Origin: Patescibacteria group bacterium
GTDB lineage: Bacteria > Patescibacteriota > Minisyncoccia > Minisyncoccales > PEYH01
Length of the DNA stretch: 34,487 nucleotides
NCBI GenBank assembly: GCA_018817645.1
Contig: JAHITK010000025.1
Coordinates: forward strand, 1 to 34,487
Reading direction: 5' to 3'
Program-made: the position numbers and the translations under genes
The notes under the pieces: model-generated
Told to the model about the DNA's origin: nothing
Seen by the model: the letters and a program-made list of their open reading frames with translations, nothing else
The model's database searches: none
Part shown: one piece after another, positions 15,782 to 17,434 of the stretch
Layout: the number at the start of each line of letters is the position of its first letter
Position numbering within the stretch: the first letter of the stretch is position 1

Positions 15782-17434
15782 ATGGCTTATTCAAAAAAAG
15801 TTATTGAAACATTTAAGAATCCCCGCCATTACGGAAAGATGAAAAATTATGACGGCTTAGGCAAGGTCGGCAATCCGGTCTGCGTTATCTCTTCCACAAG
15901 GGTTCATATTAATTGTAAAACTCAACCCATTTGTACAGTCAGGAAGGAGGATAGGGTACTTTCACATGATGGGAAGTATCATCCTATTAAATCAATTTAT
16001 AGGCACGATTTTTTAGGAAAAATTTTCGTTATCAAAAATAAATTAGGCAAGACATATTTAACGGCTGATCACTTGATTTTAGCGGCCAAGATTCCCAAAA
16101 CTTGGTATTTTTCTTTTACTAAAAATAAGAAAAGATTTATTAAGGACTTGGGCTGGTATCATGCTCAAGAACTAGAAAAAAAGGATATTATTGCTTATCC
16201 TATTTTAAAAGAAATAGAAGACAAGAAGTACCTTAAAATAGATTTTGAAAAGGCAAAATATGATTTTAAGAGCCGAACATTGCCCCAACCAATAAAAATA
16301 TCCCCAGATTTTTTAAGATTGATCGGCTATTACCTCGCTGAGGGGGATATTCAAGAGGAGAGGGGCAGGAACCGAGTTGGCCTTACCTTTGATATTAATG
16401 AATCTGAACATATAGATGATGTCTACAAAATAGTTAAAAATGTTTTTGCCCTAAAGCCCTACATTAGAAAAAATCCTACTCGCAATACAGCGCGGGTGGA
16501 TATTCATAGCGTGGAGCTGGTTAAATTACTAAAAGACCTTTGCGGGAAGGGGGCCGCCGATAAGCATATCCCGCATTTTATGATGTTGCTTCCTCCCAAG
16601 AAACAAATTAGTTTAATACAGGGGCTGTGGCGCGGAGGTGGATATTTAAATACTACAAGAGAATATCCAAGGGGCGGTTATAGCACCATATCCCACCAAC
16701 TTGCCCAACAATTGAAAATGCTTTTATTAAGACAAGGGATTATCCCTTCCATGTACGAAGAGGAAGAAAAAGTGAGGGGCGGCCTTAAACACAAGAAAAG
16801 TTTCAGAGTACATGTGGGTCAACGATCTTCTTTGGAGAAACTGTGCAAGATTATGGATATTCCGTTCCATGGTCAAAAAGAAGTTAGGGTTGACAGCTGG
16901 ATTGACGGAGATTATGCAATATTGCCCATTACGGGGATTAAATATAAGAATTACAGGGGGGCAGTTTGGAATTTAGAGGTTAAGAATTCAAGATCTTTCA
17001 CGACCCCTTCATTGTGTCTCCATAATTGCGGAGACGTGATGTGGCTCTATATCAAGGTCAGCCGGAATAAAAAAGGAGAAGATGTTATTAAAGATATCAG
17101 TTTTGAAACCTTCGGGTGTATCGCGGCTCTGGCTTCAAGCAGTATCATTACCGAGGTGGTCAAGGGCAAAACCATCAAAGAGGCGCTTAAAGTGAGCAAA
17201 CAGGAAGTGCTGGATAAGTTAGGAGGGCTTCCTCCGATAAAGATTCATTGTTCGGTTTTGGCCATAGACGCCCTCCGCGAAGCCATTTATGATTTTTTAA
17301 GAAAAGATAAGAAGGTGATTCCCGATAATCTGGAGAAAAGACATCAGGTGTTAGAAGCAGAGAGGAAACAGATTGAAGAGAAGTACAGCGATTGGATAAA
17401 TAAGGAAGAAGAATTTCATAGCCAGAATGATTAA
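15782..17434 (+). CDS. iscU: IscU-type Fe-S scaffold interrupted in frame by an intein
   Basis: Exteins: MAYSKKVIETFKNPRHYGKM..GKVGNPV and CGDVMWLYIKV..FETFGCIAALASSSI..PIKIHCSVLA. Confidence 0.93.
   Translation: MAYSKKVIETFKNPRHYGKMKNYDGLGKVGNPVCVISSTRVHINCKTQPICTVRKEDRVLSHDGKYHPIKSIYRHDFLGKIFVIKNKLGKTYLTADHLILAAKIPKTWYFSFTKNKKRFIKDLGWYHAQELEKKDIIAYPILKEIEDKKYLKIDFEKAKYDFKSRTLPQPIKISPDFLRLIGYYLAEGDIQEERGRNRVGLTFDINESEHIDDVYKIVKNVFALKPYIRKNPTRNTARVDIHSVELVKLLKDLCGKGAADKHIPHFMMLLPPKKQISLIQGLWRGGGYLNTTREYPRGGYSTISHQLAQQLKMLLLRQGIIPSMYEEEEKVRGGLKHKKSFRVHVGQRSSLEKLCKIMDIPFHGQKEVRVDSWIDGDYAILPITGIKYKNYRGAVWNLEVKNSRSFTTPSLCLHNCGDVMWLYIKVSRNKKGEDVIKDISFETFGCIAALASSSIITEVVKGKTIKEALKVSKQEVLDKLGGLPPIKIHCSVLAIDALREAIYDFLRKDKKVIPDNLEKRHQVLEAERKQIEEKYSDWINKEEEFHSQND
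15881..17026 (+). mobile_element. Intein (382 aa) with LAGLIDADG endonuclease domain, in IscU
   Basis: Begins at Cys; block B TADH; endonuclease motif LRLIGYYLAEGD; block F/G VWNLEVKNSRSFTTPSLCLHN followed by Cys+1. Confidence 0.93.

What the first reader, a model, noticed from the sequence alone, without database searches (positions are those of the whole stretch)
15881..17026. Intein interrupting the Fe-S scaffold IscU exactly before its first conserved cysteine
Seen directly: the IscU ORF reads GKVGNPV | C...LHN | CGDVMWLY. Removing 382 residues restores the invariant GNPVCGD motif, and the other two cluster Cys (FGCIAALASSS and KIHCS) lie in the C-extein. Intein hallmarks are present: Cys1, TADH block B, terminal His-Asn, Cys+1. 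The +1 splicing nucleophile is also the first scaffold ligand Cys, so the unspliced precursor has a split active site. Inference: splicing of this host protein could respond to redox, metal or sulfur state. I do not recall a described IscU intein, but I could not search for one.
Basis: partly seen in the sequence, partly recalled or inferred. Interest (0 to 1): 0.9.

Follow-up and report, generated by a model that had tools for sequence, protein, structure and literature searches.

The report
Intein interrupting iron-sulfur scaffold protein IscU
In this tiny bacterium the only gene for IscU, the protein on which iron-sulfur clusters are built, is interrupted at its first cluster-binding cysteine by a self-removing protein element (an intein), and the same or a related insertion recurs in hundreds of bacterial and archaeal relatives, so their iron-sulfur supply probably depends on protein splicing.

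Summary
Window 15782-17434 encodes IscU interrupted by a 382-residue intein (15881-17026) directly before the first ligand Cys. All class 1 splicing residues are present (Cys1, T-x-x-H, His-Asn, Cys+1), and a confident AlphaFold model (pLDDT 88.8) matches intein and IscU structures. It is the genome's only NifU_N gene, and no SufB/D was found. A same-genus relative has a precise empty allele; another has the intein. It is not unique: over 400 relatives were found. The 120 best keep all splicing residues, and named carriers span Patescibacteria, DPANN, Methanomassiliicoccales and Verstraetearchaeota. A second intein family sits before the second ligand Cys, and seven IscUs carry both. None was seen before the third. 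Intein/extein discordance shows horizontal spread. In this copy a catalytic Asp of the homing endonuclease is Gly, so homing is probably lost while splicing residues are intact. Best reading: a mobile class 1 intein maintained by necessary splicing. Its position follows from a conserved target and the need for a +1 nucleophile, so redox or metal control is possible but unproven. No paper in the searched open library describes an IscU/NifU intein. New member of a known kind; nearest precedent is the SufB intein.

The parts
15782..15880 (+). N-extein of IscU (33 aa, MAYSKK...GKVGNPV)
   Evidence: NifU_N positions 1-34 match at E 3.1e-6; aligned to A. fulgidus IscU
15881..17026 (+). 382-aa class 1 intein with a LAGLIDADG homing-endonuclease domain
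   Evidence: Invariant Cys1, T61, H64, H381, N382 in 120/120 relatives; model matches TliVMA intein and PI-SceI
15881..15883 (+). Cys1, first splicing nucleophile
   Evidence: 120/120
16061..16072 (+). Block B T-A-D-H (T61, H64)
   Evidence: T and H 120/120
16340..16342 (+). Endonuclease acid 1, E154 in LIGYYLAEG
   Evidence: E in 118/120
16637..16639 (+). Endonuclease acid 2 position 253: GGT (Gly) here, Asp in 116/120 relatives including the same genus
   Evidence: aligned to the GDG of PI-PkoII
17021..17026 (+). Terminal His-Asn of the intein (H381, N382)
   Evidence: 120/120
17027..17434 (+). C-extein of IscU; begins with Cys+1 = first cluster-ligand Cys, and carries Asp of CGD, Cys of FGC and His-Cys of KIHC
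   Evidence: NifU_N 31-125, E 1.3e-31
14628..15776 (+). IscS-type cysteine desulfurase, directly upstream
   Evidence: PF00266 2.4e-80
17427..18488 (+). MnmA-type tRNA thiouridylase, overlaps the end of iscU
   Evidence: PF03054 1.5e-54

Best explanation
A class 1, self-splicing, LAGLIDADG-bearing intein is inserted in the organism's only iscU, exactly before the codon of the first cluster-ligand Cys. Shown: the anatomy, the invariance of the splicing residues, the empty allele in a sister genome, the recurrence in other lineages and the discordant intein/extein identities that imply horizontal spread. Inferred: the precursor splices by the standard route (N-S shift at Cys1, transesterification to the ligand Cys as +1, Asn cyclisation, S-N shift), freeing that Cys for cluster assembly. 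Also inferred: the element entered by endonuclease-driven homing at a conserved codon stretch, and it now persists in this copy with a probably inactive endonuclease because only precise loss or continued splicing keeps IscU working.
For: Exact in-frame insertion that restores GNPVCGD. Joined exons align without gaps over 434 nt at 77.9% to the empty same-genus allele. Cys1, T61, H64, H381, N382 and Cys+1 are 120/120 in relatives, against 118/120 and 116/120 for the endonuclease acids. AlphaFold pLDDT 88.8, with top structural matches to TliVMA intein and PI-SceI, plus A. fulgidus IscU at rmsd 1.1 A over 97 columns. Only one NifU_N gene and no SufB/D in a 100% complete bin, yet radical-SAM genes are present. 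The complete genome of L037 (G531) likewise shows only the interrupted IscU and no SufB/D. Extein tree: window and G001 are sisters with the empty G002 next, and at least 8 gains or losses of the site-a state are forced. P0029/P0101 inteins are 90% identical, their exteins 62%.
Against: Splicing itself was not observed. The Pfam Intein_splicing score is below its curated cut-off for this copy. Alternative scaffolds (Nfu, Mrp/ApbC, A-type carriers) were not searched, so the necessity of IscU is inferred. The D253G change rests on one bin's consensus base.
Confidence: 0.92

Rival explanations
1. Conditional splicing: the unspliced precursor is an Fe-S scaffold held off. Because Cys+1 is a cluster ligand and the C-extein already holds the other ligands (Asp of CGD, FGC, HC), Zn/Fe/cluster binding or oxidation at that site would block the transesterification step and make IscU maturation respond to metal, sulfur or redox state.
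For: Inteins at two of the three ligand Cys and seven double-intein IscUs. The endonuclease is lost or degenerate in some copies while splicing residues persist. The IscU core is predicted folded in the precursor. Precedents: the SufB intein reported as an oxidative/nitrosative stress sensor (PMC5874633 citing Topilina 2015) and zinc bound at the DnaBi1 splicing nucleophile (PMC7360933). A Cys at intein position -4 in 67/120 site-a inteins.
Against: No invariant extra Cys in the intein. The -4 Cys is missing in 53/120. Patchy distribution with many empty sisters fits a selfish element better than a kept switch. Target conservation plus the +1 requirement explain the position.
Confidence: 0.2
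2. A dead intein or assembly/binning artefact: the fusion does not splice, or does not exist.
For: No splicing assay; the Pfam intein model is under threshold for this copy.
Against: Independent assemblies in the same genus and in hundreds of other contigs, including a complete chromosome; strict conservation of splicing residues; in-frame and gap-free against the empty allele; the only iscU in the genome.
Confidence: 0.03
3. The intein is now kept for homing rather than by necessity, that is, it is still an active mobile element in this genus.
For: The HEN domain is under purifying selection between window and G001 (dN/dS about 0.08, synonymous sites near saturation). G001 keeps E154 and D253.
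Against: The window copy has Gly at the second catalytic acid.
Confidence: 0.15

Closest known systems
SufB intein of Mycobacterium tuberculosis (and Ferroplasma)
   Same: Intein in an Fe-S cluster scaffold/assembly protein, Cys1 and Cys+1, several insertion sites across species; splicing reported to respond to oxidative and nitrosative stress (PMC8891592, PMC5874633)
   Different: SufB and IscU are unrelated folds and pathways; here the +1 Cys is a canonical IscU cluster ligand, and the carriers are Patescibacteria, DPANN and other archaea
VMA inteins (TliVMA, PI-SceI) and PI-PkoII/PI-PfuI
   Same: Hint splicing fold plus two-motif LAGLIDADG endonuclease; best structural matches of the model and best sequence match 2cw7
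   Different: Different host proteins; only 12-19% structural-alignment identity for the listed VMA and PI-PfuI matches
Inteins in PorB-like and thioredoxin-reductase-like proteins of Nanoarchaeota-type genomes (found here)
   Same: Matched by the same site-a profile (E 1e-104 to 1e-61) and also directly before a motif Cys (WCPG|C, CAT|C)
   Different: Different host proteins; not previously described to my knowledge

Membership tests
Class 1 intein | N-terminal nucleophile Cys/Ser at position 1 | tested here: met
   Cys1, 120/120
Class 1 intein | Block B T-x-x-H | tested here: met
   T61, H64, 120/120
Class 1 intein | Terminal His-Asn followed by Cys/Ser/Thr +1 | tested here: met
   H381, N382, Cys+1, 120/120
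Class 1 intein | Hint splicing fold | tested here: met
   AlphaFold pLDDT 88.8; Foldseek E 4e-21 to TliVMA intein
Class 1 intein | Pfam Intein_splicing model above curated cut-off | tested here: inconclusive
   21.6 bits against cut-off 35.8 for this copy; many relatives are precomputed as PF14890
Class 1 intein | Precise empty allele in a close relative | tested here: met
   G002 (L044), gap-free 434 nt
Class 1 intein | Splicing demonstrated | not testable with these tools
   needs expression or proteomics
LAGLIDADG homing endonuclease | Two motifs with both catalytic acids | tested here: not met
   E154 kept, D253 is Gly in this copy; 116/120 relatives have Asp
IscU/NifU_N scaffold | NifU_N profile and three ligand Cys plus Asp and His | tested here: met
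   8.4e-38; CGD, FGC, HC invariant
IscU/NifU_N scaffold | Binds and transfers Fe-S clusters | not testable with these tools
   biochemistry needed
SufB intein | Host is SufB | tested here: not met
   host is NifU_N; no SufB/D in this genome
Redox- or metal-regulated intein | Splicing rate changes with redox or metal | not testable with these tools

The most novel reading that the evidence does not exclude
A lineage of archaeal and Patescibacterial inteins occupies cofactor or redox cysteines (IscU ligand 1, IscU ligand 2, the PorB cluster-motif Cys, the thioredoxin-reductase CxxC). In IscU it acts as a maturation switch: metal or cluster binding to, or oxidation of, the shared +1/ligand Cys holds the scaffold unspliced.
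Probability: 0.15. Interest if true: 0.85.

Novelty: new member of a known kind. Interest (0 to 1): 0.6.

Why it matters
Whether inteins are only parasites or also post-translational switches is a long-standing question, and the Fe-S scaffold SufB is a main test case. IscU gives an independent and cleaner one: a small, well-understood scaffold whose cluster ligand is itself the splicing nucleophile, with natural site-a, site-b, double-intein and empty versions available to compare, and with carriers whose only detected scaffold is interrupted. If splicing is merely constitutive, the work still adds two intein insertion sites and a large, horizontally mobile family spanning bacteria and archaea.

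Tried and rejected
Third ligand Cys as an insertion site: a dedicated protein search gave 21 intein-bearing hits listed among 114 new proteins, 19 at site a, 2 at site b, none before K-x-H-C; the listing stops at 120 of 881, so rare cases are not excluded. A conserved redox Cys pair inside the intein: C322 and C379 occur together in 52/120 and singly in 30/120, so they are not required. Virus or plasmid carriage of the IscU-intein fusion: only unrelated inteins at under 30% identity, or plain IscU, were found. The PF01592 census lists were cut before the low-scoring split matches, so prevalence was recounted with the precursor profile.

Full report
OBSERVATION. The ORF at 15773-17434 (likely start ATG 15782) reads through IscU with a 382-residue insert at nt 15881-17026; removing it restores GNPVCGD and leaves a 168-residue IscU with Cys ligands in CGD, FGC and KIHCS. 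Pfam finds NifU_N in two pieces (8e-38 overall), LAGLIDADG_3 (1e-13) and Intein_splicing (2e-4, below its cut-off). PDB sequence matches are IscU/NifU structures for the exteins, and PI-PkoII for the insert. The gene lies between an IscS-type desulfurase and an MnmA-type tRNA thiouridylase.

SOLE COPY. The bin holding the window (665 kb, 28 contigs, listed 100% complete) has one NifU_N gene, this one, and no SufB/D core. It does have radical-SAM genes, so clusters are presumably needed (inference). The same search found no SufB/D in 11 of 12 carrier genomes tested. One of those 11 is the genome of L037, published as a complete chromosome, whose only NifU_N gene is interrupted. Nfu, Mrp/ApbC and A-type carriers were not searched.

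SPLICING ANATOMY. In 120 full-length relatives Cys1, Thr61, His64, His381, Asn382 and Cys+1 are invariant. The precursor model (90-sequence alignment) has mean pLDDT 88.8 and pTM 0.80. Its best PDB structural matches are the TliVMA intein (E 4e-21) and PI-SceI, followed by IscU structures such as A. fulgidus IscU at 1.1 A over 97 columns. So the IscU C-extein core is predicted to be folded already in the precursor.

ENDONUCLEASE. Glu154 and Asp253 are the conserved acids of the two LAGLIDADG motifs (118/120 and 116/120). The window has Gly253 (codon GGT), while its same-genus relative G001 keeps Asp. The aligned PI-PkoII residue is the Asp of GDG. The endonuclease region is nevertheless as conserved as the extein between the two genomes (dN/dS about 0.08 each, synonymous sites near saturation), so the loss is probably recent or a consensus error.

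EMPTY SITE AND DISTRIBUTION. Same-genus G002 has the uninterrupted gene; the joined window exons align to it over 434 nt without a gap at 77.9%. In the order-level set of 147 genomes, 92 have NifU_N matches; five show site-a inteins and two show site-b. With the precursor profile, full-length site-a forms are in 10 of 382 genomes of the phylum of L033 and 2 of 389 Patescibacteria. Named carriers include Woesearchaeota, Pacearchaeota, Nanoarchaeota, Aenigmatarchaeota, Diapherotrites, Fermentimicrarchaeum, Gribaldobacteria, Verstraetearchaeota and Methanomassiliicoccales.

SECOND SITE AND DOUBLE INTEINS. Genomes G017 and G068 carry a different intein directly before the second ligand Cys (FG|C). 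It stands for a family of at least 260 proteins (the search also counts site-a forms among its weaker hits) in which Cys1, His-Asn and Cys+1 are invariant in the best 120, reaching Nealsonbacteria and Hadarchaeota. Seven proteins have a 144-159 aa mini-intein before ligand 1, without an endonuclease domain, and a full intein before ligand 2. The minis match site-a inteins best. No intein was seen before ligand 3 in a dedicated but truncated search.

HISTORY. On the extein tree, window and G001 are sisters (99/82), with empty G002 and then empty G004 outside. The site-a label needs at least 8 gains or losses on well-supported branches, and a site-a and a site-b IscU are sisters (P0012/G068, 100/100). 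Intein and extein identities correlate only weakly (r 0.38), and pairs such as P0029/P0101 (90% intein, 62% extein) show recent intein transfer. Window and G001 are 77% and 76%, compatible with shared inheritance.

FUNCTION. Shown: anatomy, conservation, empty allele, spread. Inferred: ordinary class 1 splicing, required for IscU function. Regulation is open. Of eight conserved Cys/Ser/Thr positions in IscU, three are Cys, all ligands, so an intein needing Cys+1 in a conserved target must sit at a ligand. Extra intein Cys are not conserved; a Cys at -4 in 67/120 site-a inteins against 2/120 site-b is a lead only. Precedents for conditional splicing are SufB and DnaBi1.

LITERATURE. Searches of the held open library for intein with IscU, NifU, Candidate Phyla Radiation, DPANN, Patescibacteria, Woesearchaeota and iron-sulfur cluster assembly found no report of an IscU/NifU intein. 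This rests on titles, abstracts and hit counts, with only a few papers opened. Subscription papers and InBase were not searchable, so the novelty claim is limited to that.

Noticed in passing
G000 outside the window: L072-L078: The small host genome is intein-rich: by reading the translations, inteins also appear in UvrD-like helicase, DnaE, GyrB (two), GyrA, PEP synthase, a VirB4-like ATPase and anaerobic ribonucleotide reductase.
   Followed up: partly
L080, L081 (G833, G790): A related intein sits before the second Cys of the WCPGC motif of a 2-oxoacid:ferredoxin oxidoreductase beta subunit, a motif that binds an Fe-S cluster (from general knowledge).
   Followed up: partly
L084, L085 (G717, G810): Related inteins in thioredoxin-reductase-like flavoproteins, directly before the second Cys of the CxxC redox motif.
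   Followed up: partly
L082, L083, L086, L087, L088: Related inteins in other hosts: PHP-type protein (IPAH|CWTPWF), acetyl-CoA synthetase, and a CoA-enzyme-activase-like protein, each before a Cys.
   Followed up: no
P0242-P0286 (Methanoperedens, Methanosarcinales): About 444-aa fusions of an IscU domain with a thioredoxin-reductase-like flavoprotein, annotated as NifU.
   Followed up: no
G530 (genome of L036): This Nanoarchaeota genome has both an intein-interrupted iscU and a separate intact NifU_N gene.
   Followed up: no
L089 (G719): A divergent IscU with a longer N-terminus and a weak BFD-like tail also carries the site-a intein, so the site is invaded beyond the main IscU clade.
   Followed up: no
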